Shown in pieces: positions 1-64,000 of a stretch of DNA of 64,000 nt. This stretch comes from Henricia sp. BOLD:AAB3569 (Eukaryota; Echinodermata; Asteroidea; Spinulosida; Echinasteridae), in NCBI GenBank assembly GCA_037783545.1, contig JBBELK010001435.1:62001-126000 (forward strand), read 5' to 3'. A program made the position numbers and the translations under genes. A model generated the notes under the pieces. That model saw only the letters and a list, made by a program, of their open reading frames with translations, did not search any database and was not told where the DNA came from. The first letter of the stretch is position 1, and each line of letters opens with the position of its first letter.

Positions 1-3000
1 TTTTTCGACCTCCAAATTTGCCGACGTTTGGACCACACTTTCACCAAATTGCCGAGCCAAACTGCGGTGCGTTAACGACAGTCCGAATGACTGAGCATGC
101 GCACAACTCAGGAGTACCCCAAAGAGGTGTGTACAGACAGCCACGGTTTGCGTGAGAGCAGTCAGGAAGCCTCAACCCAGTTTTTTCTAAACTTTGAAAT
201 TTCTCTGCCATTTCCCGGCGAAAGTCTGTCAATTTTTTATGACAAGTGCGCAATATAGAGAGTTTAGGGCATGCAAAATTTGAAGTTCGTCGGAACATTT
301 TTCGACCTCCAAATTTGCCGACGTTTGGACCACACTTTGACCAAATTGCCGAGCCAAACTGCGGTGCGTTAACGACAGTCCGAATGACTGAGCATGCGCA
401 CAACTCAGGAGTACCCCAAAGAGGTGTGTACAGACAGCCACGGTTTGCGTGAGAGCAGTCAGGAAGCCTCAACCCAGTTTTTTCTAAACTTTGAAATTTC
501 TCTGCCATTTCCCGGCGAAAGTCTGTCAATTTTTTTATGACAAGTGCGCAATATAGAGAGTTTAGGGCATGCAAAATTTGAAGTTCGTCGGAACATTTTT
601 CGACCTCCAAATTTGCCGACGTTTGGACCACACTTTGACCAAATTGCCGAGCCAAACTGCGGTGCGTTAACGACAGTCCGAATGACTGAGCATGCGCACA
701 ACTCAGGAGTACCCCAAAGAGGTGTGTACAGACAGCCACGGTTTGCGTGAGAGCAGTCAGGAAGCCTCAACCCAGTTTTTTCTAAACTTTGAAATTTCTC
801 TGCCATTTCCCGGCGAAAGTCTGTCAATTTTTTATGACAAGTGCGCAATATAGAGAGTTTAGGGCAAGCAAAATTTGAAGTTCGTCGGAACATTTTTCGA
901 CCTCCAAATTTGCCGACGTTTGGACCACACTTTGACCAAATTGCCGAGCCAAACTGCGGTGCGTTAACGACAGTCCGAATGACTGAGCATGCGCACAACT
1001 CAGGAGTACCCCAAAGAGGTGTGTACAGACAGCCACGGTTTGCGTGAGAGCAGTCAGGAAGCCTCAACCCAGTTTTTTTCTAAACTTTGAAATTTCTCTG
1101 CCATTTCCCGGCGAAAGTCTGTCAATTTTTTATGACAAGTGCGCAATATAGAGAGTTTAGGGCAAGCAAAATTTGAAGTTCGTCGGAACATTTTTCGACC
1201 TCCAAATTTGCCGACGTTTGGACCACACTTTGACCAAATTGCCGAGCCAAACTGCGGTGCGTTAACGACAGTCCGAATGACTGAGCATGCGCACAACTCA
1301 GGAGTACCCCAAAGAGGTGTGTACAGACAGCCACGGTTTGCGTGAGAGCAGTCAGGAAGCCTCAACCCAGTTTTTTTCTAAACTTTGAAATTTCTCTGCC
1401 ATTTCCCGGCGAAAGTCTGTCAATTTTTTATGACAAGTGCGCAATATAGAGAGTTTAGGGCATGCAAAATTTGAAGTTCGTCGGAACATTTTTCGACCTC
1501 CAAATTTGCCGACGTTTGGACCACACTTTGACCAAATTGCCGAGCCAAACTGCGGTGCGTTAACGACAGTCCGAATGACTGAGCATGCGCACAACTCAGG
1601 AGTACCCCAAAGAGGTGTGTACAGACAGCCACGGTTTGCGTGAGAGCAGTCAGGAAGCCTCAACCCAGTTTTTTCTAAACTTTGAAATTTCTCTGCCATT
1701 TCCCGGCGAAAGTCTGTCAATTTTGTATGACAAGTGCGCAATATAGAGAGTTTAGGGCATGCAAAATTTGAAGTTCGTCGGAACATTTTTCGACCGCCAA
1801 ATTTGCCGACGTTTGGACCACACTTTGACCAAATTGCCGAGCCAAACTGCGGTGCGTTAACGACAGTCCGAATGACTGAGCATGCGCACAACTCAGGAGT
1901 ACCCCAAAGAGGTGTGTACAGACAGCCACGGTTTGAGTGAGAGCAGTCAGGAAGCCTCAACCCAGTTTTTTCTAAACTTTGAAATTTCTCTGCCATTTCC
2001 CGGCGAAAGTCTATCAATTTTTTATGACAAGTGCGCAATATAGAGAGTTTAGGGCATGCAAAATTTGAAGTTCGTCGGAACATTTTTCGACCTCCAAATT
2101 TGCCGACGTTTGGACCACACTTTGACCAAATTGCCGAGCCAAACTGCGGTGCGTTAACGACAGTCCGAATGACTGAGCATGCGCACAACTCAGGAGTACC
2201 CCAAAGAGGTGTGTACAGACAGCCACGGTTTGCGTGAGAGCAGTCAGGAAGCCTCAACCCAGTTTTTTTCTAAACTTTGAAATTTCTCTGCCATTTCCCG
2301 GCGAAAGTCTGTCAATTTTTTATGACAAGTGCGCAATATAGAGAGTTTAGGGCATGCAAAATTTGAAGTTCGTCGGAACATTTTTCGACCTCCAAATTTG
2401 CCGACGTTTGGACCACACTTTGACCAAATTGCCGAGCCAAACTGCGGTGCGTTAACGACAGTCCGAATGACTGAGCATGCGCATAACTCAGGAGTACCCC
2501 AAAGAGGTGTGTACAGACAGCCACGGTTTGCGTGAGAGCAGTCAGGAAGCCTCAACCCAGTTTTTTCTAAACTTTGAAATTTCTCTGCCATTTCCAGGCG
2601 AAAGTCTGTCAATTTTTTATGACAAGTGCGCAATATAGAGAGTTTAGGGCAAGCAAAATTTGAAGTTCGTCGGAACATTTTTCGACCTCCAAATTTGCCG
2701 ACGTTTGGACCACACTTTGACCAAATTGCCGAGCCAAACTGCGGTGCGTTAACGACAGTCCGAATGACTGAGCATGCGCACAACTCAGGAGTACCCCAAA
2801 GAGGTGTGTACAGACAGCCACGGTTTGCGTGAGAGCAGTCAGGAAGCCTCAACCCAGTTTTTTTCTAAACTTTGAAATTTCTCTGCCATTTCCCGGCGAA
2901 AGTCTGTCAATTTTTTATGACAAGTGCGCAATATAGAGAGTTTAGGGCATGCAAAATTTGAAGTTCGTCGGAACATTTTTCGACCTCCAAATTTGCCGAC

Positions 3001-6000
3001 GTTTGGACCACACTTTGACCAAATTGCCGAGCCAAACTGCGGTGCGTTAACGACAGTCCGAATGACTGAGCATGCGCACAACTCAGGAGTACCCCAAAGA
3101 GGTGTGTACAGACAGCCACGGTTTGCGTGAGAGCAGTCAGGAAGCCTCAACCCAGTTTTTTTCTAAACTTTGAAATTTCTCTGCCATTTCCCGGCGAAAG
3201 TCTGTCAATTTTTTATGACAAGTGCGCAATATAGAGAGTTTAGGGCATGCAAAATTTGAAGTTCGTCGGAACATTTTTCGACCTCCAAATTTGCCGACGT
3301 TTGGACCACACTTTGACCAAATTGCCGAGCCAAACTGCGGTGCGTTAACGACAGTCCGAATGACTGAGCATGCGCACAACTCAGGAGTACCCCAAAGAGG
3401 TGTGTACAGACAGCCACGGTTTGCGTGAGAGCAGTCAGGAAGCCTCAACCCAGTTTTTTCTAAACTTTGAAATTTCTCTGCCATTTCCCGGCGAAAGTCT
3501 GTCAATTTTTTATGACAAGTGCGCAATATAGAGAGTTTAGGGCATGCAAAATTTGAAGTTCGTCGGAACATTTTTCGACCTCCAAATTTGCCGACGTTTG
3601 GACCACACTTTGACCAAATTGCCGAGCCAAACTGCGGTGCGTTAACGACAGTCCGAATGACTGAGCATGCGCACAACTCAGGAGTACCCCAAAGAGGTGT
3701 GTACAGACAGCCACGGTTTGCGTGAGAGCAGTCAGGAAGCCTCAACCCAGTTTTTTCTAAACTTTGAAATTTCTCTGCCATTTCCCGGCGAAAGTCTGTC
3801 AATTTTTTATGACAAGTGCGCAATATAGAGAGTTTAGGGCATGCAAAATTTGAAGTTCGTCGGAACATTTTTCGACCTCCAAATTTGCCGACGTTTGGAC
3901 CACACTTTGACCAAATTGCCGAGCCAAACTGCGGTGCGTTAACGACAGTCCGAATGACTGAGCATGCGCACAACTCAGGAGTACCCCAAAGAGGTGTGTA
4001 CAGACAGCCACGGTTTGCGTGAGAGCAGTCAGGAAGCCTCAACCCAGTTTTTTCTAAACTTTGAAATTTCTCTGCCATTTCCCGGCGAAAGTCTGTCAAT
4101 TTGTTATGACAAGTGCGCAATATAGAGAGTTTAGGGCATGCAAAATTTGAAGTTCGTCGAAACATTTTTCGACCTCCAAATTTGCCGACGTTTGGACCAC
4201 ACTTTGATCAAATTGCCGAGCCAAACTGCGGTGCGTTAACGACAGTCCGAATGACTGAGCATGCGCACAACTCAGGAGTACCCCAAAGAGGTGTGTACAG
4301 ACAGCCACGGTTTGCGTGAGAGCAGTCAGGAAGCCTCAACCCAGTTTTTTCTAAACTTTGAAATTTCTCTGCCATTTCCCGGCGAAAGTCTGTCAATTTT
4401 TTATGACAAGTGCGCAATATAGAGAGTTTAGGGCATGCAAAATTTGAAGTTCGTCGGAACATTTTTCGACCTCCAAATTTGCCGACGTTTGGACCACACT
4501 TTGACCAAATTGCCGAGCCAAACTGCGGTGCGTTAACGACAGTCCGAATGACTGAGCATGCGCACAACTCAGGAGTACCCCAAAGAGGTGTGTACAGACA
4601 GCCACGGTTTGCGTGAGAGCAGTCGGGAAGCCTCAACCCAGTTTTTTATAAACTTTGAAATTTCTCTGCCATTTCCCGGCGAAAGTCTGTCAATTTTTTT
4701 ATGACAAGTGCGCAATATAGAGAGTTTAGGGCATGCAAAATTTGAAGTTCGTCGGAACATTTTTCGACCTCCAAATTTGCCGACGTTTGGACCACACTTT
4801 GACCAAATTGCCGAGCCAAACTGCGGTGCGTTAACGACAGTCCGAATGACTGAGCATGCGCACAACTCAGGAGTACCCCAAAGAGGTGTGTACGGACAGC
4901 CACGGTTTGCGTGAGAGCAGTCAGGAAGCCTCAACCCAGTTTTTTCTAAACTTTGAAATTTCTCTGCCATTTCCCGGCGAAAGTCTGTCAATTTTTTTAT
5001 GACAAGTGCGCAATATAGAGAGTTTAGGGCATGCAAAATTTGAAGTTCGTCGGAACATTTTTCGACCTCCAAATTTGCCGACGTTTGGACCACACTTTGA
5101 CCAAATTGCCGAGCCAAACTGCGGTGCGTTAACGACAGTCCGAATGACTGAGCATGCGCACAACTCAGGAGTACCCCAAATAGGTGTGTACAGACAGCCA
5201 CGGTTTGCGTGAGAGCAGTCAGGAAGCCTCAACCCAGTTTTTTCTAAACTTTGAAATTTCTCTGCCATTTCCCGGCGAAAGTCTGTCAATTTTTTATGAC
5301 AAGTGCGCAATATAGAGAGTTTAGGGCATGCAAAATTTGAAGTTCGTCGGAACATTTTTCGACCTCCAAATTTGCCGACGTTTGGACCACACTTTGACCA
5401 AATTGCCGAGCCAAACTGCGGTGCGTTAACGACAGTCCGAATGACTGAGCATGCGCACAACTCAGGAGTACCCCAAAGAGGTGTGTACAGACAGCCACGG
5501 TTTGCGTGAGAGCAGTCAGGAAGCCTCAACCCAGTTTTTTCTAAACTTTGAAATTTCTCTGCCATTTCCCGGCGAAAGTCTGTCAATTTTTTATGACAAG
5601 TGCGCAATATAGAGAGTTTAGGGCATGCAAAATTTGAAGTTCGTCGGAACATTTTTCGACCTCCAAATTTGCCGACGTTTGGACCACACTTTGACCAAAT
5701 TGCCGAGCCAAACTGCAGTGCGTTAACGACAGTCCGAATGACTGAGCATGCGCACAACTCAGGAGTACCCCAAAGAGGTGTGTACAGACAGCCACGGTTT
5801 GCGTGAGAGCAGTCAGGAAGCCTCAACCCAGTTTTTTCTAAACTTTGAAATTTCTCTGCCATTTCCCGGCGAAAGTCTGTCAATTTTTTATGACAAGTGC
5901 GCAATATAGAGAGTTTAGGGCATGCAAAATTTAAAGTTCGTCGGAACATTTTTCGACCTCCAAATTTGCCGACGTTTGGACCACACTTTGACCAAATTGC

Positions 6001-9000
6001 CGAGCCAAACTGCGGTGCGTTAACGACAGTCCGAATGACTGAGCATGCGCACAACTCAGGAGTACCCCAAAGAGGTGTGTACAGACAGCCACGGTTTGCG
6101 TGAGAGCAGTCAGGAAGCCTCAACCCAGTTTTTTCTAAACTTTGAAATTTCTCTGCCATTTCCCGGCGAAAGTCTGTCAATTTTTTATGACAAGTGCGCA
6201 ATATAGAGAGTTTAGGGCATGCAAAATTTGAAGTTCGTCGGAACATTTTTCGACCTCCAAAATTGCCGACGTTTGGACCACACTTTGACCAAATTGCCGA
6301 GCCAAACTGCGGTGCGTTAACGACAGTCCGAATGACTGAGCATGCGCACAACTCAGGAGTACCCCAAAGAGGTGTGTACAGACAGCCACGGTTTGCGTGA
6401 GAGCAGTCAGGAAGCCTCAACCCAGTTTTTTCTAAACTTTGAAATTTCTCTGCCATTTCCCGGCGAAAGTATGTCAATTTTTTATGACAAGTGCGCAATA
6501 TAGAGAGTTTAGGGCATGCAAAATTTGAAGTTCGTCGGAACATTTTTCGACCTCCAAATTTGCCGACGTTTGGACCACACTTTGACCAAATTGCCGAGCC
6601 AAACTGCGGTGCGTTAACGACAGTCCGAATGACTGAGCATGCGCACAACTCAGGAGTACCCCAAAGAGGTGTGTACAGACAGCCACGGTTTGCGTGAGAG
6701 CAGTCAGGAAGCCTCAACCCAGTTTTTTCTAAACTTTGAAATTTCTCTGCCATTTCCCGGCGAAAGTCTGTCAATTTTTTATGACAAGTGCGCAATATAG
6801 AGAGTTTAGGGCATGCAAAATTTGAAGTTCGTCGGAACATTTTTCGACCTCCAAATTTGCCGACGTTTGGACCACACTTTGACCAAATTGCCGAGCCAAA
6901 CTGCGGTGCGTTAACGACAGTCCGAATGACTGAGCATGCGCACAACTCAGGAGTACCCCAAAGAGGTGTGTACAGACAGCCACGGTTTGCGTGAGAGCAG
7001 TCAGGAAGCCTCAACCCAGTTTTTTCTAAACTTTGAAATTTCTCTGCCATTTCCCGGCGAAAGTCTGTCAATTTTTTATGACAAGTGCGCAATATAGAGA
7101 GTTTAGGGCATGCAAAATTTGAAGTTCGTCGGAACATTTTTCTACCTCCAAATTTGCCGACGTTTGGACCACACTTTGACCAAATTGCCGAGCCAAACTG
7201 CGGTGCGTTAACGACAGTCCGAATGACTGAGCATGCGCACAACTCAGGAGTACCCCAAAGAGGTGTGTACAGACAGCCACGGTTTGCGTGAGAGCAGTCA
7301 GGAAGCCTCAACCCAGTTTTTTCTAAACTTTGAAATTTCTCTGCCATTTCCCGGCGAAAGTCTGTCAATTTTTTATGACAAGTGCGCAATATAGAGAGTT
7401 TAGGGCATGCAAAATTTGAAGTTCGTCGGAACATTTTTCGACCTCCAAATTTGCCGACGTTTGGACCACACTTTGACCAAATTGCCGAGCCAAACTGCGG
7501 TGCGTTAACGACAGTCCGAATGACTGAGCATGCGCACAACTCAGGAGTACCCCAAAGAGGTGTGTACAGACAGCCACGGTTTGCGTGAGAGCAGTCAGGA
7601 AGCCTCAACCCAGTTTTTGTCTAAACTTTGAAATTTCTCTGCCATTTCCCGGCGAAAGTCTGTCAAATTTGTATGACAAGTGCGCAATATAGAGAGTTTA
7701 GGGCATGCAAAATTTGAAGTTCGTCGGAACATTTTTCGACCTCCAAATTTGCCGACGTTTGGACCACACTTTGACCAAATTGCCGAGCCAAACTGCGGTG
7801 CGTTAACGACAGTCCGAATGACTGAGCATGCGCACAACTCAGGAGTACCCCAAAGAGGTGTGTACAGACAGCCACGGTTTGCGTGAGAGCAGTCAGGAAG
7901 CCTCAACCCAGTTTTTTATAAACTTTGAAATTTCTCTGCCATTTCCCGGCGAAAGTCTGTCAATTTTTTATGACAAGTGCGCAATATAGAGAGTTTAGGG
8001 CATGCACAATTTGAAGTTCGTCGGAACATTTTTCGACCTCCAAATTTGCCGACGTTTGGACCACACTTTGACCAAATTGCCGAGCCAAACTGCGGTGCGT
8101 TAACGACAGTCCGAATGACTGAGCATGCGCACAACTCAGGAGTACCCCAAAGAGGTGTGTACAGACAGCCACGGTTTGCGTGAGAGCAGTCAGGAAGCCT
8201 CAACCCAGTTTTTTCTAAACTTTGAAATTTCTCTGCCATTTCCCGGCGAAAGTCTGTCCATTTTTTTTATGACAAGTGCGCAATATAGAGAGTTTAGGGC
8301 ATGCAAAATTTGAAGTTCGTCGGAACATTTTTCGACCTCCAAATTTGCCGACGTTTGGACCACACTTTCACCAAATTGCCGAGCCAAACTGCGGTGCGTT
8401 AACGACAGTCCGAATGACTGAGCATGCGCACAACTCAGGAGTACCCCAAAGAGGTGTGTACAGACAGCCACGGTTTGCGTGAGAGCAGTCAGGAAGCCTC
8501 AACCCAGTTTTTTCTAAACTTTGAAATTTCTCTGCCATTTCCCGGCGAAAGTCTGTCCATTTTTGTATGACAAGTGCGCAATATAGAGAGTTTAGGGCAT
8601 GCAAAATTTGAAGTTCGTCGGAACATTTTTCGACCTCCAAATTTGCCGACGTTTGGACCACACTTTGACCAAATTGCCGAGCCAAACTGCGGTGCGTTAA
8701 CGACAGTCCGAATGACTGAGCATGCGCACAACTCAGGAGTACCCCAAAGAGGTGTGTACAGACAGCCACGGTTTGCGTGAGAGCAGTCAGGAAGCCTCAA
8801 CCCAGTTTTTTCTAAACTTTGAAATTTCTCTGCCATTTCCCGGCGAAAGTCTGTCAATTTTTTATGACAAGTGCGCAATATAGAGAGTTTAGGGCATGCA
8901 ACATTTGAAGTTCGTCGGAACATTTTTCGACCTCCAAATTTGCCGACGTTTGGACCACACTTTGACCAAATTGCCGAGCCAAACTGCGGTGCGTTAACGA

Positions 9001-9293
9001 CAGTCCGAATGACTGAGCATGCGCACAACTCAGGAGTACCCCAAAGAGGTGTGTACAGACAGCCACGGTTTGCGTGAGAGCAGTCAGGAAGCCTTAACCC
9101 AGTTTTTTCTAAACTTTGAAATTTCTCTGCCATTTCCCGGCGAAAGTCTGTCAATTTTTTATGACAAGTGCGCAATATAGAGAGTTTAGGGCATGCAAAA
9201 TTTGAAGTTCGTCGGAACATTTTTCGACCTCCAAATTTGCCGACGTTTGGACCACACTTTGACCAAATTGCCGAGCCAAACTGCGGTGCGTTA
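1..9293 (-). repeat. Satellite A array, left block (297-bp units)
   Basis: About 31 head-to-tail copies of a 297-bp unit, running off the left edge of the window. Copies differ by only a few substitutions and by the length of one T tract (six to eight T after CCCAG), so the period varies by one base. A recognisable variant with GGGCAAGC in place of GGGCATGC occurs near 865, 1163 and 2650. The unit contains GCATGC, GTTAAC and the word ACAGCCACGGT. The block stops inside a unit after GGTGCGTTA at 9293. Low divergence between neighbours suggests recent homogenisation. No gene is embedded. Unit-forward is taken as the minus strand, by homology with the open frame of satellite B. Confidence 0.97.
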
Positions 9294-9314
9294 TGCTAGG
9301 AGTCCACTGGGCCA

Positions 9315-9339
9315 GCGCCAGTTGGTGCCAGTTTGCGCC
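9315..9339 (+). repeat. Left inverted repeat of the 9.3-9.9 kb insert
   Basis: A 25-bp stretch made of GCGCCAGTT-type blocks. It matches the reverse complement of 9865-9889 at 22 of 25 positions by hand count. Confidence 0.65.
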
Positions 9340-9462
9340 AATGCAATTTGCTGTGGCGCCTAGTGTCGCCAATAAGGTGCCTAGTGGCGTGTAGTGGCTC
9401 AAACTGCCTCCCAACTGGCTCGTGGTGGCCCGTAACGGCACCAAATTTGAATGTGGCGGCAA

Positions 9463-9489
9463 GAAAATTTCAAATTGTTTGAAATTTTC
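9463..9489. other. Hairpin, 12-bp arms
   Basis: The arms GAAAATTTCAAA and TTTGAAATTTTC are perfectly complementary around a TTG loop. It lies near the middle of the left half of the insert, between copies of GTGGCG and CGCCAC that extend the inverted symmetry imperfectly. Confidence 0.7.
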
Positions 9490-9691
9490 GTCGCGCCACT
9501 TGCATCGAGCAATCAGCGCCAAGTGTCCGCCAAGTGGCACCAAATGGCGCGAACATATCGCCCTTTGGTGCAAACAATCCGCCTATTGGAATCCACTGGA
9601 ATGTAAGTTGCGCCAATGAGACATATCAAAATTGTAAATATTTAGTAGAGATGTTGTTCATACAGCAGCTGAGGAGGGTCTGAACCAGGTA

Positions 9692-9725
9692 GCCGATGGC
9701 CGGTATTTATATACCGGTAGTCGGC
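9692..9725. other. Hairpin with 7-bp and 5-bp stems
   Basis: The inner arms are CCGGTAT and ATACCGG around TTAT. The outer arms are GCCGA and TCGGC, separated from the inner stem by 3-nt bulges on each side. It sits inside the short transposon-like insert. No function is assigned. Confidence 0.6.
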
Positions 9726-9864
9726 AAGTAGCCCCAAGCGGCGGCAAGTTCAAACCAATTTGGCGACCTTTGGCACAAATTAATCACCAAGTGGCGCAAA
9801 GTAGCCGTCTATTGGCGCGAATGGCGCCAACAGGGTGAATTTTGGAATCAAATGGCCGTGTAAT

Positions 9865-9889
9865 GGCGCGAACTGGCGCAAACTGGCGC
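9865..9889 (-). repeat. Right inverted repeat of the 9.3-9.9 kb insert
   Basis: Partner of 9315-9339. It reads GGCGCGAACTGGCGC and onward, ending 14 bp before the first B sequence. Confidence 0.65.
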
Positions 9890-9904
9890 AACATTTTGGA
9901 GCAA

Positions 9905-9915
9905 ACCGTGGCTGT
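9905..9915 (-). other. First copy in B of the conserved word ACAGCCACGGT
   Basis: The 11-mer is present once per unit in A, B and C, although the half of the unit around it is otherwise poorly alignable. Here it marks the exact left end of the B array. A protein-binding or nicking role is possible, but nothing in the sequence proves it. Confidence 0.6.
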
Positions 9916-10812
9916 TGGGACACCCTGCGCTGCGCTGGTGTACATTTGTACGGCCGTTGACTCACCCCAGATTGTGACGGGAATTAGGTCAAAGTGTGTC
10001 CCAAATGCCGGCAAATTTAGAAATCAAGGAATTTTCCAACCAACTTTAAATTTTGCATGCTCCAAACTGTATATATTCCGCACTTGTCATGCAAAATTGA
10101 CAGATTTTCGCTGGGAAATGACGGAGAAATTTCAGAGTTTAGGGAAAGCGGAGCTCGGCTACGTGGTTATTCCCCTAACCGTGGCTGTTGGGACACCCTG
10201 CGCTGCGCTGGTGTACATTTGTACGGCCGTTGACTCACCCTAGATTGTGACGGGAATTAGGTCAAAGTGTGTCCCAAATGCCGGCAAATTTGGAAATCAA
10301 GGAATTTTCCAACCAACTTCAAATTTTGCATGCTCCAAACTGTATATATTCCGCACTTGTCATGCAAAATTGACAGATTTTCGCTAGGAAATGACGGAGA
10401 AATTTCAGAGTTTAGGGAAAGCGGAGCTCGGCTACGTGGTTATTCCCCTAACCGTGGCTGTTGGGACACCCTGCGCTGCGCTGGTGTACATTTGTACGGC
10501 CGTTGACTCACCCCAGATTGTGACGGGAATTAGGTCAAAGTGTGTCCCAAATGCCGGCAAATTTGGAAATCAAGGAATTTTCCAACCAACTTTAAATTTT
10601 GCATGCTCCAAACTGTATATATTCCGCACTTGTCATGCAAAATTGACAGATTTTCGCTGGGAAATGACGGAGAAATTTCAGAGTTTAGGGAAAGCGGAGC
10701 TCGGCTACGTGGTTATTCCCCTAACCGTGGCTGTTGGGACACCCTGCGCTGCGCTGGTGTACATTTGTACGGCCGTTGACTCACCCCAGATTGTGACGGG
10801 AATTAGGTCAAA

Positions 10813-11007
10813 GTGTGTCCCAAATGCCGGCAAATTTGGAAATCAAGGAATTTTCCAACCAACTTCAAATTGTGCATGCTCCAAACTGTATATATTCCGC
10901 TACGTGGTTATTCCCCTAACCGTGGCTGTTGGGACACCCTGCGCTGCGCTTGTGTACATTTGTACGGCCGTTGACTCACCCCAGATTGTGACGAGAATTA
11001 GGTCAAA
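10813..11007 (+). repeat. Internally deleted B unit (195 bp)
   Basis: This unit lacks 78 bp that normally run from CACTTGTCATGC to GAGCTCG. The junction reads TTCCGC/TACGTGG at 10900, with a 2-bp GC microhomology. The loss is a multiple of three, so the unit's open frame is kept. Confidence 0.9.
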
Positions 11008-24212: not shown

Positions 24213-24219
24213 CGTTTAG

Positions 24220-25457: not shown

Positions 25458-25496
25458 GACAACTCGTACCCGGGACAACATGATTTTTTTTTTCAG

Positions 25497-51355: not shown

Positions 51356-53138
51356 GTGCGCAATATAGAGAGTTTAGGGCATGCAAAATTTGAAGTTCGT
51401 CGGAACATTTTTCGACCTCCAAATTTGCCGACGTTTGGACCACACTTTGACCAAATTACCGAGCCAAACTGCGGTGCGTTAACGACAGTCCGAATGACTG
51501 AGCATGCGCACAACTCAGGAGTACCCCAAAGAGGTGTGTACAGACAGCCACGGTTTGCGTGAGAGCAGTCAGGAAACCTCAACCCAGTTTTTTCTAAACT
51601 TTGAAATTTCTCTGCCATTTCCCGGCGAAAGTCTGTCAACTTTTTATGACAAGTGCGCAATATAGAGAGTTTAGGGCATGCAAAATTTGAAGTTCGTCGG
51701 AACATTTTTCGACCTCCAAATTTGCCGACGTTTGGACCACACTTTGACCAAATTGCCGAGCCAAACTGCGGTGCGTTAACGACAGTCCGAATGACTGAGC
51801 ATGCGCACAACTCAGGAGTACCCCAAAGAGGTGTGTACAGACAGCCACGGTTTGCGTGAGAGCAGTCAGGAAGCCTCAACCCAGTTTTTTCTAAACTTTG
51901 AAATTTCTCTGCCATTTCCCGGCGAAAGTCTGTCCATTTTGTTATGACAAGTGCGCAATATAGAGAGTTTAGGGCATGCAAAATTTGAAGTTCGTCGGAA
52001 CATTTTTCGACCTCCAAATTTGCCGACGTTTGGACCACACTTTCACCAAATTGCCGAGCCAAACTGCGGTGCGTTAACGACAGTCCGAATGACTGAGCAT
52101 GCGCACAACTCAGGAGTACCCCAAAGAGGTGTGTACAGACAGCCACGGTTTGCGTGAGAGCAGTCAGGAAGCCTCAACCCAGTTTTTTCTAAACTTTGAA
52201 ATTTCTCTGCCATTTCCCGGCGAAAGTCTGTCAATTTTTTATGACAAGTGCGCAATATAGAGAGTTTAGGGCATGCAAAATTTGAAGTTCGTCCGAACAT
52301 TTTTCGACCTCCAAATTTGCCGACGTTTGGACCACACTTTGACCAAATTGCCGAGCCAAACTGCGGTGCGTTAACGACAGTCCGAATGACTGAGCATGCG
52401 CACAACTCAGGAGTACCCCAAAGAGGTGTGTACAGACAGCCACGGTTTGCGTGAGAGCAGTCAGGAAGCCTCAACCCAGTTTTTTCTAAACTTTGAAATT
52501 TCTCTGCCATTTCCCGGCGAAAGTCTGTCAATTTTTTATGACAAGTGCGCAATATAGAGAGTTTAGGGCATGCAAAATTTGAAGTTCGTCGGAACATTTT
52601 TCGACCTCCAAATTTGCCGACGTTTGGACCACACTTTGACCAAATTGCCGAGCCAAACTGCGGTGCGTTAACGACAGTCCGAATGACTGAGCATGCGCAC
52701 AACTCAGGAGTACCCCAAAGAGGTGTGTACAGACAGCCACGGTTTGCGTGAGAGCAGTCAGGAAGCCTCAACCCATTTTTTTCTAAACTTTGAAATTTCT
52801 CTGCCATTTCCCGGCGAAAGTCTGTCAATTTTTTATGACAAGTGCGCAATATAGAGAGTTTAGGGCATGCAAAATTTGAAGTTCGTCGGAACATTTTTCG
52901 ACCTCCAAATTTGCCGACGTTTGGACCACACTTTGACCAAATTGCCGAGCCAAACTGCGGTGCGTTAACGACAGTCCGAATGACTGAGCATGCGCACAAC
53001 TCAGGAGTACCCCAAAGAGGTGTGTACAGACAGCCACGGTTTGCGTGAGAGCAGTCAGGAAGCCTCAACCCAGTTTTTTCTAAACTTTGAAATTTCTCTG
53101 CCATTTCCCGGCGAAAGTCTGTCAATTTTTTATGACAA
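51356..53138 (-). repeat. A-type higher-order duplication, copy 1 (offset 2377 bp)
   Basis: Six units match 53733-55515. Diagnostic shared changes are AAATTACCGAGCC and AGGAAACCTC in the first unit, GTCAACTTTT in the second, GTCCATTTTG with TTTCACCAAATT in the third, GTCCGAACATT in the fourth, and CCCATTTTTTTC after the fifth. The offset is eight units plus one base. Confidence 0.85.
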
Positions 53139-53732
53139 GTGCGCAATATAGAGAGTTTAGGGCATGCAAAATTTGAAGTTCGTCCGAACATTTTTCGACC
53201 TCCAAATTTGCCGACGTTTGGACCACACTTTGACCAAATTGCCGAGCCAAACTGCGGTGCGTTAACGACAGTCCGAATGACTGAGCATGCGCACAACTCA
53301 GGAGTACCCCAAAGAGGTGTGTACAGACAGCCACGGTTTGCGTGAGAGCAGTCAGGAAGCCTCAACCCAGTTTTTTCTAAACTTTGAAATTTCTCTGCCA
53401 TTTCCCGGCGAAAGTCTGTCAATTTTTTATGACAAGTGCGCAATATAGAGAGTTTAGGGCATGCAAAATTTGAAGTTCGTCCGAACATTTTTCGAACTCC
53501 AAATTTGCCGACGTTTGGACCACACTTTGACCAAATTGCCGAGCCAAACTGCGGTGCGTTAACGACAGTCCGAATGACTGAGCATGCGCACAACTCAGGA
53601 GTACCCCACAGAGGTGTGTACAGACAGCCACGGTTTGCGTGAGAGCAGTCAGGAAGCCTCAACCCAGTTTTTTCTAAACTTTGAAATTTCTCTGCCATTT
53701 CCCGGCGAAAGTCTGTCAATTTTTTATGACAA

Positions 53733-55515
53733 GTGCGCAATATAGAGAGTTTAGGGCATGCAAAATTTGAAGTTCGTCGGAACATTTTTCGACCTCCAAA
53801 TTTGCCGACGTTTGGACCACACTTTGACCAAATTACCGAGCCAAACTGCGGTGCGTTAACGACAGTCCGAATGACTGAGCATGCGCACAACTCAGGAGTA
53901 CCCCAAAGAGGTGTGTACAGACAGCCACGGTTTGCGTGAGAGCAGTCAGGAAACCTCAACCCAGTTTTTTCTAAACTTTGAAATTTCTCTGCCATTTCCC
54001 GGCGAAAGTCTGTCAACTTTTTATGACAAGTGCGCAATATAGAGAGTTTAGGGCATGCAAAATTTGAAGTTCGTCGGAACATTTTTCGACCTCCAAATTT
54101 GCCGACGTTTGGACCACACTTTGACCAAATTGCCGAGCCAAACTGCGGTGCGTTAACGACAGTCCGAATGACTGAGCATGCGCACAACTCAGGAGTACCC
54201 CAAAGAGGTGTGTACAGACAGCCACGGTTTGCGTGAGAGCAGTCAGGAAGCCTCAACCCAGTTTTTTCTAAACTTTGAAATTTCTCTGCCATTTCCCGGC
54301 GAAAGTCTGTCCATTTTGTTATGACAAGTGCGCAATATAGAGAGTTTAGGGCATGCAAAATTTGAAGTTCGTCGGAACATTTTTCGACCTCCAAATTTGC
54401 CGACGTTTGGACCACACTTTCACCAAATTGCCGAGCCAAACTGCGGTGCGTTAACGACAGTCCGAATGACTGAGCATGCGCACAACTCAGGAGTACCCCA
54501 AAGAGGTGTGTACAGACAGCCACGGTTTGCGTGAGAGCAGTCAGGAAGCCTCAACCCAGTTTTTTCTAAACTTTGAAATTTCTCTGCCATTTCCCGGCGA
54601 AAGTCTGTCAATTTTTTATGACAAGTGCGCAATATAGAGAGTTTAGGGCATGCAAAATTTGAAGTTCGTCCGAACATTTTTCGACCTCCAAATTTGCCGA
54701 CGTTTGGACCACACTTTGACCAAATTGCCGAGCCAAACTGCGGTGCGTTAACGACAGTCCGAATGACTGAGCATGCGCACAACTCAGGAGTACCCCAAAG
54801 AGGTGTGTACAGACAGCCACGGTTTGCGTGAGAGCAGTCAGGAAGCCTCAACCCAGTTTTTTCTAAACTTTGAAATTTCTCTGCCATTTCCCGGCGAAAG
54901 TCTGTCAATTTTTTATGACAAGTGCGCAATATAGAGAGTTTAGGGCATGCAAAATTTGAAGTTCGTCGGAACATTTTTCGACCTCCAAATTTGCCGACGT
55001 TTGGACCACACTTTGACCAAATTGCCGAGCCAAACTGCGGTGCGTTAACGACAGTCCGAATGACTGAGCATGCGCACAACTCAGGAGTACCCCAAAGAGG
55101 TGTGTACAGACAGCCACGGTTTGCGTGAGAGCAGTCAGGAAGCCTCAACCCATTTTTTTCTAAACTTTGAAATTTCTCTGCCATTTCCCGGCGAAAGTCT
55201 GTCAATTTTTTATGACAAGTGCGCAATATAGAGAGTTTAGGGCATGCAAAATTTGAAGTTCGTCGGAACATTTTTCGACCTCCAAATTTGCCGACGTTTG
55301 GACCACACTTTGACCAAATTGCCGAGCCAAACTGCGGTGCGTTAACGACAGTCCGAATGACTGAGCATGCGCACAACTCAGGAGTACCCCAAAGAGGTGT
55401 GTACAGACAGCCACGGTTTGCGTGAGAGCAGTCAGGAAGCCTCAACCCAGTTTTTTCTAAACTTTGAAATTTCTCTGCCATTTCCCGGCGAAAGTCTGTC
55501 AATTTGTTATGACAA
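53733..55515 (-). repeat. A-type higher-order duplication, copy 2
   Basis: Partner of 51356-53138 with the same ordered set of rare variants. The following units differ, so the duplication edge lies near 55515. Confidence 0.85.
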
Positions 55516-58500
55516 GTGCGCAATATAGAGAGTTTAGGGCATGCAAAATTTGAAGTTCGTCCGAACATTTTTCGAACTCCAAATTTGCCGACGTTTGGAC
55601 CACACTTTGACCAAATTGCCGAGCCAAACTGCGGTGCGTTAACGACAGTCCGAATGACTGAGCATGCGCACAACTCAGGAGTACCCCACAGAGGTGTGTA
55701 CAGACAGCCACGGTTTGCGTGAGAGCAGTCAGGAAGCCTCAACCCAGTTTTTTCTAAACTTTGAAATTTCTCTGCCATTTCCCGGCGAAAGTCTGTCAAT
55801 TTTTTATGACAAGTGCGCAATATAGAGAGTTTAGGGCATGCAAAATTTGAAGTTCGTCGGAACATTTTTCGACCTCCAAATTTGCCGACGTTTGGACCAC
55901 ACTTTGACCAAATTGCCGAGCCAAACTGCGGTGCGTTAACGACAGTCCGAATGACTGAGCATGCGCACAACTCAGGAGTACCCCAAAGAGGTGTGTACAG
56001 ACAGCCACGGTTTGCGTGAGAGCAGTCAGGAAGCCTCAACCCAGTTTTTTCTAAACTTTGAAATTTCTCTGCCATTTCCCGGCGAAAGTCTGTCAACTTT
56101 TTATGACAAGTGCGCAATATAGAGAGTTTAGGAAATGCAAAATTTGAAGTTCGTCGGAACATTTTTCGACCTCCAAATTTGCCGACGTTTGGACCACACT
56201 TTGACCAAATTGCCGAGCCAAACTGCGGTGCGTTAACGACAGTCCGAATGACTGAGTATGCGCACAACTCAGGAGTACCCCAAAGAGGTGTGTACAGACA
56301 GCCACGGTTTGCGTGAGAGCAGTCAGGAAGCCTCAACCCAGTTTTTTCTAAACTTTGAAATTTCTCTGCCATTTCCCGGCGAAAGTCTGTCAATTTTTTA
56401 TGACAAGTGCGCAATATAGAGAGTTTAGGGCATGCAAAATTTGAAGTTCGTCGGAACATTTTTCGACCTCCAAATTTGCCGACGTTTGGACCACACTTTG
56501 ACCAAATTGCCGAGCCAAACTGCGGTGCGTTAACGACAGTCCGAATGACTGAGCATGCGCACAACTCAGGAGTACCCCAAAGAGGTGTGTACAGACAGCC
56601 ACGGTTTGCGTGAGAGCAGTCAGGAAGCCTCAACCCAGTTTTTTCTAAACTTTGAAATTTCTCTGCCATTTCCCGGCGAAAGTCTGTCAATTTTTGTATG
56701 ACAAGTGCGCAATATAGAGAGTTTAGGGCATGCAAAATTTGAAGTTCGTCGGAACATTTTTCGACCTCCAAATTTGCCGACGTTTGGACCACACTTTGAC
56801 CAAATTGCCGAGCCAAACTGCGGTGCGTTAACGACAGTCCGAATGACTGAGCATGCGCACAACTCAGGAGTACCCCAAAGAGGTGTGTACAGACAGCCAC
56901 GGTTTGCGTGAGAGCAGTCAGGAAGCCTCAACCCAGTTTTTTCTAAACTTTGAAATTTCTCTGCCATTTCCCGGCGAAAGTCTGTCAATTTTTTATGACA
57001 AGTGCGCAATATAGAGAGTTTAGGGCATGCAAAATTTGAAGTTCGTCGGAACATTTTTCGACCTCCAAATTTGCCGACGTTTGGACCACACTTTGACCAA
57101 ATTGCCGAGCCAAACTGCGGTGCGTTAACGACAGTCCGAATGACTGAGCATGCGCACAACTCAGGAGTACCCCAAAGAGGTGTGTACAGACAGCCACGGT
57201 TTGCGTGAGAGCAGTCAGGAAGCCTCAACCCAGTTTTTTCTAAACTTTGAAATTTCTCTGCCATTTCCCGGCGAAAGTCTGTCAACTTTTTATGACAAGT
57301 GCGCAATATAGAGAGTTTAGGGCATGCAAAATTTGAAGTTCGTCGGAACATTTTTCGACCTCCAAATTTGCCGACGTTTGGACCACACTTTGACCAAATT
57401 GCCGAGCCAAACTGCGGTGCGTTAACGACAGTCCGAATGACTGAGCATGCGCACAACTCAGGAGTACCCCAAAGAGGTGTGTACAGACAGCCACGGTTTG
57501 CGTGAGAGCAGTCAGGAAGCCTCAACCCAGTTTTTTCTAAACTTTGAAATTTATCTGCCATTTCCCGGCGAAAGTCTGTCCATTTTGTTATGACAAGTGC
57601 GCAATATAGAGAGTTTAGGGCATGCAAAATTTGAAGTTCGTCGGAACATTTTTCGACCTCCAAATTTGCCGACGTTTGGACCACACTTTCACCAAATTGC
57701 CGAGCCAAACTGCGGTGCGTTAACGACAGTCCGAATGACTGAGCATGCGCACAACTCAGGAGTACCCCAAAGAGGTGTGTACAGACAGCCACGGTTTGCG
57801 TGAGAGCAGTCAGGAAGCCTCAACCCAGTTTTTTCTAAACTTTGAAATTTCTCTGCCATTTCCCGGCGAAAGTCTGTCAATTTTTTATGACAAGTGCGCA
57901 ATATAGAGAGTTTAGGGCATGCAAAATTTGAAGTTCGTCGGAACATTTTTCGACCTCCAAATTTGCCGACGTTTGGACCACACTTTGACCAAATTGCCGA
58001 GCCAAACTGCGGTGCGTTAACGACAGTCCGAATGACTGAGCATGCGCACAACTCAGGAGTACCCCAAAGAGGTGTGTACAGACAGCCACGGTTTGCGTGA
58101 GAGCAGTCGACAGGAAGCCTCAACCCAGTTTTTTCTAAACTTTGAAATTTCTCTGCCATTTCCCGGCGAAAGTCTGTCAATTTTGTATGACAAGTGCGCA
58201 ATATAGAGAGTTTAGGGCATGCAAAATTTGAAGTTCGTCCGAACATTTTTCGAACTCCAAATTTGCCGACGTTTGGACCACACTTTGACCAAATTGCCGA
58301 GCCAAACTGCGGTGCGTTAACGACAGTCCGAATGACTGAGCATGCGCACAACTCAGGAGTACCCCACAGAGGTGTGTACAGACAGCCACGGTTTGCGTGA
58401 GACCAGTCAGGAAGCCTCAACCCAGTTTTTTCTAAACTTTGAAATTTCTCTGCCATTTCCCGGCGAAAGTCTGTCAATTTTTTATGACAAGTGCGCAATA

Positions 58501-59797
58501 TAGAGAGTTTAGGGCATGCAAAATTTGAAGTTCGTCGGAACATTTTTCGACCTCCAAATTTGCCGACGTTTGGACCACACTTTGACCAAATTGCCGAGCC
58601 AAACTGCGGTGCGTTAACGACAGTCCGAATGACTGAGCATGCGCACAACTCAGGAGTACCCCAAAGAGGTGTGTACAGACAGCCACGGTTTGCGTGAGAG
58701 CAGTCAGGAAGCCTCAACCCAGTTTTTTCTAAACTTTGAAATTTCTCAGCCATTTCCCGGCGAAAGTCTGTCCATTTTTTTATGACAAGTGCGCAATATA
58801 GAGAGTTTAGGGCATGCAAAATTTGAAGTTCGTCGGAACATTTTTCGACCTCCAAATTTGCCGACGTTTGGACCACACTTTCACCAAATTGCCGAGCCAA
58901 ACTGCGGTGCGTTAACGACAGTCCGAATGACTGAGCATGCGCACAACTCAGGAGTACCCCAAAGAGGTGTGTACAGACAGCCACGGTTTGCGTGAGAGCA
59001 GTCAGGAAGCCTCAACCCATTTTTTTCTAAACTTTGAAATTTCTCTGCCATTTCCCGGCGAAAGTCTGTCAATTTTTTATGACAAGTGCGCAATATAGAG
59101 AGTTTAGGGCATGCAAAATTTGAAGTTCGTCGGAACATTTTTCGACCTCCAAATTTGCCGACGTTTGGACCACACTTTGACCAAATTGCCGAGCCAAACT
59201 GCGGTGCGTTAACGACAGTCCGAATGACTGAGCATGCGCACAACTCAGGAGTACCCCAAAGAGGTGTGTACAGACAGCCACGGTTTGCGTGAGAGCAGTC
59301 AGGAAGCCTCAACCCAGTTTTTTCTAAACTTTGAAATATCTCTGCCATTTCCCGGCGAAAGTCTGTCAATTTTTTATGACAAGTGCGCAATATAGAGAGT
59401 TTAGGGCATGCAAAATTTGAAGTTCGTCGGAACATTTTTCGACCTCCAAATTTGCCGACGTTTGGACCACACTTTGACCAAATTGCCGAGCCAAACTGCG
59501 GTGCGTTAACGACAGTCCGAATGACTGAGCATGCGCACAACTCAGGAGTACCCCAAAGAGGTGTGTACAGACAGCCACGGTTTGCGTGAGAGCAGTCAGG
59601 AAGCCTCAACCCAGTTTTTTCTAAACTTTGAAATTTCTCTGCCATTTCCCGGCGAAAGTCTGTCCATTTTTTTATGACAAGTGCGCAATATAGAGAGTTT
59701 AGGGCATGCAAAATTTGAAGTTCGTCGGAACATTTTTCGACCTCCAAATTTGCCGACGTTTGGACCACACTTTCACCAAATTGCCTTTTTCTAAAAT

Positions 59798-59819
59798 GTT
59801 TTATTCGTCCGAATAAAAC
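59798..59819. other. Perfect 10-bp hairpin at the insertion's left end
   Basis: GTTTTATTCG, TC loop, CGAATAAAAC. It lies 12 bp inside the left junction. Confidence 0.8.
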
Positions 59820-59870
59820 ACGCTAACCAGTCCAACGTTGTTACCGATAGAACCAGTGCTTCAGCAGCCG

Positions 59871-60148
59871 TTGTCGTTGCCAGTCCAGGTCATTTATCCA
59901 CTAAGCGTTCGCCGTTATTGCCAAATTTCCTCATTCGTAGTCGTTGCCAGTCCAGGTCATTTATCCACTAAGCGTTCGCCGTTATTGCCAAATTTCCTCA
60001 TTCGTAGTCATTGCCAGTCCAGGTCATTTATCCACCAATTGTTCGCCGTTATTGCCAAATTTCCTCATTCGTTGTCGTTGCCAGTCCAGGTCATTTATCC
60101 ACCAAATTTCCTCATTCGTTGTCGTTGCCAATCCAGGTCATTATCCGG
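59871..60148 (+). repeat. 67-bp minisatellite
   Basis: Units begin TTGCCAGTCCAGGTCATTTA. GCCAGTCC occurs at 59879, 59946, 60013 and 60080 (67-bp steps), and a variant GCCAATCC lies at 60127 after a unit shortened by 20 bp. The unit also holds GTTCGCCGTTATTGCC and TTTCCTCATTCG. A stray CCAGTCCAGGTC at about 60258 hints at an older, longer array. Confidence 0.9.
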
Positions 60149-60513
60149 CGAGTATTCTCCATCACAATCATCACCAATATTGGTCGATCGTGTCCGAGTA
60201 TCAGGTCATATCCTTCGAGAAGCACCACAGGTACATCCTCATAAAACCACAATCGTCACCAGTCCAGGTCTGGAAGAATCAAGACCGCAGACTCGGATCC
60301 AATCGTGTTCCAAAATTGCATCGGCGTTCCCCGTGACGTACGTACTGGTCACTCCATCATTGAGCAACGTTCCAGGACATCACGGGATTCCGCGAAAAAC
60401 TCCTCCAAACTACCTATGTGCAAGGGTAGTCCTTTGGAAAGCGGTCATCACAGGCCAGCGAGGAAAGAACCCGTACGCCAACCCGACCGCCTCAAACTGC
60501 GGTGCGTTAACGA

Positions 60514-63500
60514 CCGAGCCAAACTGCGGTGCGTTAACGACAGTCCGAATGACTGAGCATGCGCACAACTCAGGAGTACCCCAAAGAGGTGTGTACAGAC
60601 AGCCACGGTTTGCGTGAGAGCAGTCAGGAAGCCTCAACCCAGTTTTTTCTAAACTTTGAAATTTCTCTGCCATTTCCTGGCGAAAGTCTGTCAATTTTTT
60701 ATGACAAGTGCGCAATATAGAGAGTTTAGGGCATGCAAAATTTGAAGTTCGTCGGAACATTTTTCGACCTCCAAATTTGCCGACGTTTGGACCACACTTT
60801 GACCAAATTGCCGAGCCAAACTGCGGTGCGTTAACGACGGTCCGAATGACTGAGCACGCGCACAACTCAGGAGTACCCCAAAGAGGTGTGTACAGACAGC
60901 CACGGTTTGCGTGAGAGCAGTCAGGAAGCCTCAACCCAGTTTTTTTCTAAACTTTGAAATTTCTCTGCCATTTCCCGGCGAAAGTCTGTCAATTTTGTAT
61001 GACAAGTGCGCAATATAGAGAGTTTAGGGCATGCAAAATTTGAAGTTCGTCGGAACATTTTTCGACCTCCAAATTTGCCGACGTTTGGACCACACTTTGA
61101 CCAAATTGCCGAGCCAAACTACGGTGCGTTAACGACAGTCCGAATGACTGAGCATGCGCACAACTCAGGAGTACCCCAAAGAGGTGTGTACAGACAGCCA
61201 CGGTTTGCGTGAGAGCAGTCAGGAAGCCTCAACCCAGTTTTTTCTAAACTTTGAAATTTTCTGCCATTTCCCGGCGAAAGTCTGTCAATTTTGTATGACA
61301 AGTGCGCAATATAGAGAGTTTAGGGCATGCAAAATTTGAAGTTCGTCGGAACATTTTTCGACCTCCAAATTTGCCGACGTTTGGACCACACTTTGACCAA
61401 ATTGCCGAGCCAAACTGCGGTGCGTTAACGACAGTCCGAATGACTGAGCATGCGCACAACTCAGGAGTACCCCAAAGAGGTGTGTACAGACAGCCACGGT
61501 TTGCGTGAGAGCAGTCAGGAAGCCTCAACCCATTTTTTTCTAAACTTTGAAATTTCTCTGCCATTTCCCGGCGAAAGTCTGTCAATTTTTTATGACAAGT
61601 GCGCAATATAGAGAGTTTAGGGCATGCAAAATTTGAAGTTCGTCGGAACATTTTTCGACCTCCAAATTTGCCGACGTTTGGACCACACTTTGACCAAATT
61701 GCCGAGCCAAACTGCGGTGCGTTAACGACAGTCCGAATGACTGAGCATGCGCACAACTCAGGAGTACCCCAAAGAGGTGTGTACAGACAGCCACGGTTTG
61801 CGTGAGAGCAGTCAGGAAGCCTCAACCCAGTTTTTTCTAAACTTTGAAATTTCTCTGCCATTTCCCGGCGAAAGTCTGTCCATTTTTTTATGACAAGTGC
61901 GCAATATAGAGAGTTTAGGGCATGCAAAATTTGAAGTTCGTCGGAACATTTTTCGACCTCCAAATTTGCCGACGTTTGGACCACACTTTCACCAAATTGC
62001 CGAGCCAAACTGCGGTGCGTTAACGACAGTCCGAATGACTGAGCATGCGCACAACTCAGGAGTACCCCAAAGAGGGGTGTACAGACAGCCACGGTTTGCG
62101 TGAGAGCAGTCAGGAAGCCTCAACCCAGTTTTTTCTAAACTTTGAAATATCTCTGCCATTTCCCGGCGAAAGTCTGTCAATTTTTTATGACAAGTGCGCA
62201 ATATAGAGAGTTTAGGGCATGCAAAATTTGAAGTTCGTCGGAACATTTTTCGACCTCCAAATTTGCCGACGTTTGGACCACACTTTGACCAAATTGCCGA
62301 GCCAAACTGCGGTGCGTTAACGACAGTCCGAATGACTGAGCATGCGCACAACTCAGGAGTACCCCAAAGAGGTGTGTACAGACAGCCACGGTTTGCGTGA
62401 GAGCAGTCAGGAAGCCTCAACCCAGTTTTTTCTAAACTTTGAAATTTCTCTGCCATTTCCCGGCGAAAGTCTGTCCATTTTTTTATGACAAGTGCGCAAT
62501 ATAGAGAGTTTAGGGCATGCAAAATTTGAAGTTCGTCGGAACATTTTTCGACCTCCAAATTTGCCGACGTTTGGACCACACTTTCACCAAATTGCCGAGC
62601 CAAACTGCGGTGCGTTAACGACAGTCCGAATGACTGAGCATGCGCACAACTCAGGAGTACCCCAAAGAGGTGTGTACAGACAGCCACGGTTTGCGTGAGA
62701 GCAGTCAGGAAGCCTCAACCCAGTTTTATCTAAACTTTGAAATTTCTCTGCCATTTCCCGGCGAAAGTCTGTCAATTTTTTATGACAAGTGCGCAATATA
62801 GAGAGTTTAGGGCATGCAAAATTTGAAGTTCGTCGGAACATTTTTCGACCTCCAAATTTGCCGACGTTTGGACCACACTTTGACGAAATTGCCGAGCCAA
62901 ACTGCGGTGCGTTAACGACAGTCCGAATGACTGAGCATGCGCACAACTCAGGAGTACCCCAAAGAGGTGTGTACAGACAGCCACGGTTTGCGTGAGAGCA
63001 GTCAGGAAGCCTCAACCCAGTTTTTTCTAAACTTTGAAATTTCTCTGCCATTTCCCGGCGAAAGTCTGTCAATTTTTTTATGACAAGTGCGCAATATAGA
63101 GAGTTTAGGGCATGCAAAATTTGAAGTTCGTCGGAACATTTTTCGACCTCCAAATTTGCCGACGTTTGGACCACACTTTGACCAAATTGCCGAGCCAAAC
63201 TGCGGTGCGTTAACGACAGTCCGAATGACTGAGCATGCGCACAACTCAGGAGTACCCCAAAGAGGTGTGTACAGACAGCCACGGTTTGCGTGAGAGCAGT
63301 CAGGAAGCCTCTCAACCCAGTTTTTTCTAAACTTTGAAATTTCTCTGCCATTTCCCGGCGAAAGTCTGTCAATTTTTTTATGACAAGTGCGCAATATAGA
63401 GAGTTTAGGGCATGCAAAATTTGAAGTTCGTCGGAACATTTTTCGACCTCCAAATTTGCCGACGTTTGGACCACACTTTGACCAAATTGCCGAGCCAAAC

Positions 63501-63576
63501 TGCGGTGCGTTAACGACAGTCCGAATGACTGAGCATGCGCACAACTCAGGAGTACCCCAAAGAGGTGTGTACAGAC
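60514..63576 (-). repeat. Satellite A array, fourth block
   Basis: About ten units. They show more private changes than the central blocks: GAGCACGCGC near 60855, AACTACGGTG near 61120, GAGGGGTGT near 62074, and CCTCTCAACC near 63310. This fits an array edge. Confidence 0.96.
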
Positions 63577-63577
63577 C
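63575..63577. other. Head-to-head inversion junction within satellite A
   Basis: Minus-oriented A ends at GTGTACAGAC and the sequence continues CGCAGTTTGGCTCGG, which is A on the other strand. AC fits both sides. One side cuts the conserved ACAGCCACGGT word after AC. The other lies in AAACTGCGGTGCG. Confidence 0.92.
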
Positions 63578-64000
63578 GCAGTTTGGCTCGGCAATTTGGT
63601 CAAAGTGTGGTCCAAACGTCGGCAAATTTGGAGGTCGAAAAATGTTCCGACGAACTTCAAATTTTGCATGCCCTAAACTCTCTATATTGCGCACTTGTCA
63701 TAAAAAATTGACAGACTTTCGCCGGGAAATGGCAGAGAAATTTCAAAGTTTAGAAAAAACTGGGTTGAGGCTTCCTGACTGCTCTCACGCAAACCGTGGC
63801 TGTCTGTACACACCTCTTTGGGGTACTCCTGAGTTGTGCGCATGCTCAGTCATTCGGACTGTCGTTAACGCACCGCAGTTTGGCTCGGCAATTTGGTCAA
63901 AGTGTGGTCCAAACGTCGGCGAATTTGGAGGTCGAAAAATGTTCCGACGAACTTCAAATGTTGCATGCCCTAAACTCTCTATATTGCGCACTTGTCATAA
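63577..64000 (+). repeat. Satellite A, inverted block (runs off the window)
   Basis: About 1.4 units of A in plus orientation, the same orientation as B. Private changes are GTCGGCGAATTTGG near 63915 and TCAAATGTTGC near 63955. Confidence 0.93.

What the first reader, a model, noticed from the sequence alone, without database searches (positions are those of the whole stretch)
1..64000. Three homologous satellites (297, 273 and 252/258 bp) alternate in opposite orientations at one locus
By hand alignment, A, B and C share a core of roughly 165 bp (words TTTGCATGC, GGCAAATTTGGA, GCACTTGTCA, AATTGACAGA) while the rest of the unit has diverged or been replaced. B is inverted between A blocks. 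C shares states with each. A conserved core with a swapped half may reflect a bound protein or a modular exchange process. I do not recognise this family.
Basis: seen in the sequence. Interest (0 to 1): 0.72.

Follow-up and report, generated by a model that had tools for sequence, protein, structure and literature searches.

The report
Abundant starfish satellite with three subfamilies
Three look-alike tandem repeats in this stretch of a starfish genome are branches of one very abundant satellite DNA family, and their differing halves come from small deletions and exchange between arrays rather than from a foreign replacement.

Summary
A (297 bp), B (273) and C (252/258) are homologous satellites; their consensus units share a 152-column core that aligns without a gap. 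B lies inverted between A blocks, and the array turns again at 63576/63577. "Core kept, half replaced" does not hold. Full-length variants on another contig (D 294 bp, E 295 bp) bridge the types: B differs from D mainly by a 25-bp gap and a 5-bp repeat, C from E by gaps of 24, 15 and 6 bp. Exchange is real, though. Contig C71 carries a 531-bp dimer made of B and C pieces, and the C block of the window is a ~1.3-kb near-copy (2 mismatches in 1321) of a stretch on contig C249, set in phase into the A array. The family is not local: core words with up to 3 mismatches number 473,282, about 134 Mb or 18% of the assembly; A, B and C words give 103 Mb or 14%. The mtDNA marks a starfish. Core diversity inside arrays is not reduced and no CENP-B box is found, so a bound protein is not supported. 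Centromere location could not be tested. New member of a known kind, notable for abundance and the traceable transfer.

The parts
1..9293 (+). A array, 297/298-bp units
   Evidence: TRF; core hits
9294..9903 (.). non-satellite sequence between A and B arrays
   Evidence: read; no core hit
9904..24193 (-). B array, 273-bp units, with short units near 10900, 16474 and 20229 and a 3755-bp tandem duplication
24194..29314 (.). 5,121-bp insertion with 13-bp inverted ends inside a B unit; CT duplicated at the site
   Evidence: the intact site word occurs 102 times in the window
29315..43506 (-). B array, continued
43505..43509 (.). B-/A+ inversion junction, 2 bp of shared TG; the 32-bp junction word occurs 5 times in the genome
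43507..48239 (+). A array
48240..49564 (+). C tract (five C cores plus a C/A hybrid unit), 2 mismatches in 1321 bp to C249:52325-53645
49565..59785 (+). A array, continued
59786..60513 (.). non-satellite sequence with a 67-bp tandem repeat
60514..63576 (+). A array
63575..63578 (.). A+/A- turn, 2 bp of shared AC; one copy in the genome at up to 1 mismatch
63577..64000 (-). A array inverted, continuing through the next 10 kb of the contig
   Evidence: L075

Best explanation
A, B and C are subfamilies of one satellite family of a starfish. They descend from a full-length monomer of about 294 bp. B lost about 25 bp and gained a 5-bp repeat, and C lost about 45 bp in three pieces. Each then spread by amplification of segments, which keeps arrays nearly uniform. 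Arrays of different subfamilies still exchange tracts by homologous pairing in register, most easily through the gap-free core, where both partners match without interruption; the C block in the window is one such conversion-like transfer. Turns of orientation come from a different process, end joining with 2-bp matches, and the B/A turn was later copied with a larger segment. The arrays most likely form heterochromatin, perhaps around centromeres. Shown: homology, bridging forms, recombinants, the C tract and its best match, copy numbers, junctions. Inferred: direction of the deletions, the exchange pathway, direction of the C transfer, the chromatin role.
For: Core score far above shuffles. 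D and E collinear with one 1-bp gap; B against D 95/116 identical with a 25-bp gap, a 5-bp insertion and a 1-bp gap; C against E 87/97 identical with gaps of 24, 15, 6 and 1 and a 3-bp insertion. C71 dimer: the 273-bp unit has 17 of 18 B-versus-C core sites in C state and a B-type remainder; the 258-bp unit has B states at sites 21-66 and 96 and C elsewhere; max-chi reached by 0 of 5000 permutations for each. C tract 99.85% to one C249 stretch, next best 98.2% among the 69 loci compared, limits 48240 and 49534-49564. B/A junction word 5 times on 4 contigs. Counts. Mirror units at the A+/A- turn are no more alike than all pairs, so it is not a fold-back copy.
Against: Only four subfamily switch points were mapped (two in the window, two on C71); they fall in the core or at its edge, but four are too few to show that breakpoints prefer the core. 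The left limit of the C tract lies at a short-unit joint of C249, where only a few bases match. The last of the seven C71 units read has further B states in its 3' core, so the dimer is not fully uniform. D could be a B x C-like mosaic instead of an ancestral form (max-chi 9.7, reached by 93 of 5000). E (295) and F (about 296) keep other lengths. Divergence in the core is about half that of the remainder, which long-term constraint would also give.
Confidence: 0.72

Rival explanations
1. The core is kept by a bound protein (a centromere or heterochromatin protein), and the rest is free to change.
For: Between subfamilies the core has fewer substitutions (A-B 24/152 against 43/120, Fisher p 0.0002; B-C p 0.00005; A-C p 0.03) and no gaps. 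Its length is near that of a nucleosome core (my remark).
Against: Inside the window arrays core diversity is not lower: A 88/12768 against 72/12180 (84 units, p 0.34), B 129/15048 against 82/11979 (99 units, p 0.11); segregating sites 53 core, 39 rest. No CENP-B-box-like site above shuffles in six units tested (motif recalled). Fixed differences against segregating sites: p 0.01 for A-B, 0.02 for B-C, 0.15 for A-C.
Confidence: 0.2
2. A and B share only a core because one half was replaced by foreign sequence.
For: Without the bridging forms the variable parts of A and B align poorly (score 26, shuffle maximum 24).
Against: D carries the B-like and A/C-like words in one collinear unit, and D and E align end to end. 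All three types share ACAGCCACGGT or ACAGCCACGGTT.
Confidence: 0.05
3. The satellite is a coding repeat: one antisense frame is open through A, B, C, D and the C71 273-bp unit.
For: Five of six consensus units whose length is a multiple of three are open in the same frame; the C71 258-bp unit has one stop. Random substitution of D, with branch lengths that I chose, keeps all three open in 175 of 5000 trials.
Against: No excess of substitutions at third codon positions (positions 1/2/3: A-B 7/9/8, A-C 4/4/5, B-C 3/11/4), pN/pS 0.85-0.94. Only 58 of 84 A and 69 of 99 B units keep the frame (C 4 of 4); 22 of 84 A units are 298 bp. E and F are not multiples of three. The Pfam score of the best family shrinks with the number of units read.
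Confidence: 0.03
4. The alternation of orientation and type is an assembly artefact.
For: At least one contig (C2) ends in an array, and the A+/A- turn has one copy.
Against: The B/A turn occurs at 5 places on 4 contigs, units on either side of the A turn are not mirror copies, and the C tract re-enters the A register in phase.
Confidence: 0.06

Closest known systems
Meloidogyne satellite library with conserved boxes (Mestrovic et al. 2013, PMC3694981; abstract, outline and passages seen)
   Same: Several related satellites in simple and higher-order arrays, monomers shuffled between arrays, a low-variability segment shared
   Different: There 32-64% identity and short boxes, one CENP-B-like; here 84-91% over a 152-bp gap-free core, no CENP-B-like box, and full-length bridging monomers
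Primate alpha satellite (recalled; also abstracts in the listing)
   Same: Divergent monomer subfamilies, higher-order repeats, homogenised arrays, conversion between arrays
   Different: 171-bp monomer, CENP-B boxes, proven centromere role; none of these shown here
Satellites mentioned in other starfish genome papers (Asterias amurensis PMC11090083, passages: satellite 1.80%; Plazaster borealis PMC9270726, passages: 9 satellite elements, 2,752 bp)
   Same: Same class of animals
   Different: No sequence in the passages seen, and a far lower satellite share than the 14-18% estimated here; methods differ

Membership tests
Satellite DNA (long, homogeneous head-to-tail arrays, high copy number) | Head-to-tail tandem arrays of one monomer with high uniformity | tested here: met
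   TRF 97-99% matches for A and B rows, 95% for C, 91% for the A row that spans the C block; mean departure from consensus 0.6% A, 0.8% B, 1.4% C
Satellite DNA (long, homogeneous head-to-tail arrays, high copy number) | High copy number in many places | tested here: met
   473,282 core words with up to 3 mismatches, reversed-pattern control 0; at least 11, 9 and 5 contigs in the capped lists for A, B and C
Satellite DNA (long, homogeneous head-to-tail arrays, high copy number) | Non-coding | tested here: met
   No third-position excess, pN/pS 0.85-0.94, frame broken in 26 of 84 A and 30 of 99 B units; absence of translation not tested
Centromeric satellite | Located at the centromere and bound by CENP-A | not testable with these tools
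   No chromosome map, FISH or ChIP data held
Satellites with a CENP-B box | NTTCGNNNNANNCGGGN (recalled) | tested here: not met
   Best match 7 of 9 fixed bases or fewer in six units, reached by 190 or more of 400 shuffles each
Satellites with higher-order repeats | Multimers of distinct monomers amplified as a unit | tested here: met
   531-bp dimers on C71; recurring 252/258/122 patterns on C249
A named satellite in a repeat library | Match to a Dfam or RepBase entry | not testable with these tools
   No eukaryote repeat library offered; Rfam gives 0 matches at gathering scores
Transposon-derived satellite | Monomer embedded in a mobile element | tested here: inconclusive
   Flanks of one small array on C3 read by eye; no element holding a single monomer recognised; no systematic search made

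The most novel reading that the evidence does not exclude
This is the main centromeric or pericentromeric satellite of a starfish, 14-18% of its assembly, in which the shared core survives because it is the stretch through which different arrays pair and convert each other, so that conservation is made by recombination rather than by a bound protein.
Probability: 0.25. Interest if true: 0.65.

Novelty: new member of a known kind. Interest (0 to 1): 0.42.

Why it matters
Starfish satellites seem little described. Of ten paper searches, all but 53 (mtDNA) bore on satellites or starfish genomes, and the titles listed show no paper on such a family; one search listed 15 of 1,076 papers and 12 of 35, and most subscription journals are not held. 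Here one family takes up an estimated 14-18% of an assembly, and one transfer between arrays can be measured and matched to a likely source. That makes an old question, why satellite monomers keep conserved and variable parts, testable: constraint and exchange predict different patterns inside arrays.

Tried and rejected
Swapped half: rejected by the full-length variants. CENP-B box (six units) and long dyads (A, B, C): not above shuffles. Coding satellite: rejected; the Pfam score for DUF371 fell from 64.8 bits over six A units to 25.2 over two, a sum over repeats, and B and C reads gave other families. One PDB search, with a B read only, gave nothing (best E 0.29). Rfam on the window: none. 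No tRNA gene in the window. Fold-back artefact at the A turn: rejected. The first MAFFT alignment misplaced the B variable part; pairwise alignments with a higher gap-opening cost were used for the deletion argument. The divergence tests still use the MAFFT alignment and so may overstate substitutions in the remainder. Diversity counts used 84 A and 99 B window units; units of odd length and at array ends were dropped first.

Full report
What was checked. TRF gives A (297 bp) at 1-9293, 43507-59785 and 60514-63576, B (273 bp) at 9904-24193 (in several overlapping rows) and 29315-43508, and C (252) at 48231-49686. A profile of the 152-column core finds 205 copies, some partial: B- 105, A+ 93, C+ 5, A- 2. 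Steps between neighbours of one type are mostly 297/298 in A (62 and 22), 273 in B (92), and 252/258 in C (2 and 2). Core alignments beat all 500 shuffles for each pair by a wide margin.

The genome. The window is G000:C1435:62001-126000 of a 740.7-Mb genome in 2104 contigs. Contig C2104 is the 16,221-bp mtDNA. Its COX1 reads as one frame with the echinoderm code and with the invertebrate code; AAA read as Asn gives the usual FSTNHKDIG start, which favours the echinoderm code (the motif is recalled). 16S rRNA lies opposite to 12S, and ND1 and ND2 are also reversed (genes recognised by me). A 4.6-kb inversion of 16S, ND1 and ND2 separates starfish from sea urchins (PMC3308324, passage seen). 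The species is not known to me.

How abundant. A 31-base core pattern has 328,458 exact matches (168,520 + 159,938) and 473,282 with up to 3 mismatches (245,321 + 227,961). Words specific to A, B and C, up to 3 mismatches, have 173,134, 151,158 and 39,339 matches. The reversed-pattern control is 0 in each. At the observed unit lengths these are 51, 41 and 10 Mb, 13.9% of the assembly together; all core copies at the mean unit of 283 bp make about 134 Mb, 18%, and the exact ones 93 Mb, 12.5%. These are estimates from single words. Some 110,000 core copies lack a listed A, B or C word: they are other variants, such as D, E and F, or A/B/C units changed at the word.

No swapped half. On contig C3, 0.6 Mb apart, lie arrays of E (295 bp, L078/L079) and D (294 bp, L080). 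D and E align end to end over the variable part with one 1-bp gap, 108/142 identical. B against D: 95/116 identical, a 25-bp gap, a 5-bp insertion and a 1-bp gap. C against E: 87/97 identical, gaps of 24, 15, 6 and 1, and a 3-bp insertion. A against E: 135/143, a 2-bp insertion. The variable part is thus inherited and trimmed. One result against the simple ancestral reading: D shows a weak mosaic signal of B and C states (93 of 5000 permutations).

Exchange is real. Contig C71 has a dimer of 273 + 258 bp; 531-bp steps recur in the listing, and 7 consecutive units were read in L081. The consensus 273-bp unit has C states at 17 of 18 B-versus-C core sites and then a B-type remainder (113/121 identical to B); the 258-bp unit has B states in mid-core, then C states and a C-type remainder (99 of 100 aligned bases). 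The seventh unit differs, with more B states in its 3' core. Read in a row this is one B-derived tract of about 200 bp set into C units, with both ends in the core or at its edge. In the window the C block differs by 2 of 1321 bp from C249:52325-53645; the next best stretch is 98.2% alike (also C249) and C81 97.4%. The comparison was with the 69 satellite loci held, among them 30 C loci of which one, L045, is the window itself and was left out; a better source may exist elsewhere. The limits are 48240 on the left and 49534-49564 on the right, core positions 12-42, and the A register resumes in phase. The left limit coincides with the joint of a short (122-bp) unit on C249. A conversion tract or template switch of about 1.3 kb explains this best; the direction is inferred, since C lies amid A here and amid C there.

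Turns of orientation. The B-/A+ joint shares 2 bp (TG) and its 32-bp word occurs five times: C1435:15968, C1435:105490 (this one), C1456:19368, C1656:12432, C1868:26360. One event was copied with its surroundings. The A+/A- joint shares 2 bp (AC), has one copy with up to 1 mismatch allowed, and is not a mirror copy: distances of mirrored units 5,4,7,4,5,1,6,4,6 against a mean of 4.05 for all pairs.

Why the core is kept. Between subfamilies the core changes less: A-B 24/152 against 43/120, B-C 18/152 against 31/90, A-C 13/152 against 18/99. Inside the window arrays it does not: A 0.69% against 0.59% (p 0.34), B 0.86% against 0.68% (p 0.11). Segregating sites are 53 in core, 39 in remainder. 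A protein-bound core would be expected to show less recent variation too; exchange between arrays predicts lower divergence without lower recent variation. The test is weak, because units in an array are related to each other and slightly harmful variants can linger. I favour exchange but do not exclude constraint.

Role. Arrays this abundant are as a rule heterochromatin, often around centromeres (established knowledge of satellites); no result here places the arrays on chromosomes. Some arrays lie well inside contigs of several Mb (C3, 4.4 Mb; C96, 3.9 Mb), so not all are in contigs made of satellite alone.

Verdict. A real and very abundant starfish satellite family that I could not find described in the searches named above; ordinary in kind, of interest for its share of the genome, the bridging monomers, and a transfer between arrays with a likely source.

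Noticed in passing
window 24194-29314: 5,121-bp insertion with inverted ends CCCAGTGGGCACA and many GACGTC-rich tandem repeats, CT duplicated at the site; frames from a start codon are at most 166 aa, and that one runs into the satellite.
   Followed up: partly
window 43763-47944 (-) and homologous frames: One antisense frame stays open through the A, B, C and D consensus units, with runs up to 1394 codons; no sign of codon constraint.
   Followed up: yes
window 12500-20700: A 3755-bp tandem duplication within B, 2-14 differences per kb for starts 13000-16500, sharing the same short unit.
   Followed up: partly
window about 25910-26050 and 26350-26490: Two long near-palindromes, seen by eye; look like fold-back elements.
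   Followed up: no
G000:C955 (48,576 bp): Contig holds three COX1 matches 16,221 bp apart, so it is probably a run of mtDNA copies.
   Followed up: no
L079 about 1000-1100 and L078 about 2500-2700: The C3 array of E units ends against a tRNA-like sequence, and its other flank shares words with the window insertion near 26940-27530; by eye only.
   Followed up: no
G000:C70 from base 5001: TTAGGG telomeric arrays are present in the assembly, 33,443 + 31,257 overlapping 30-mers.
   Followed up: no
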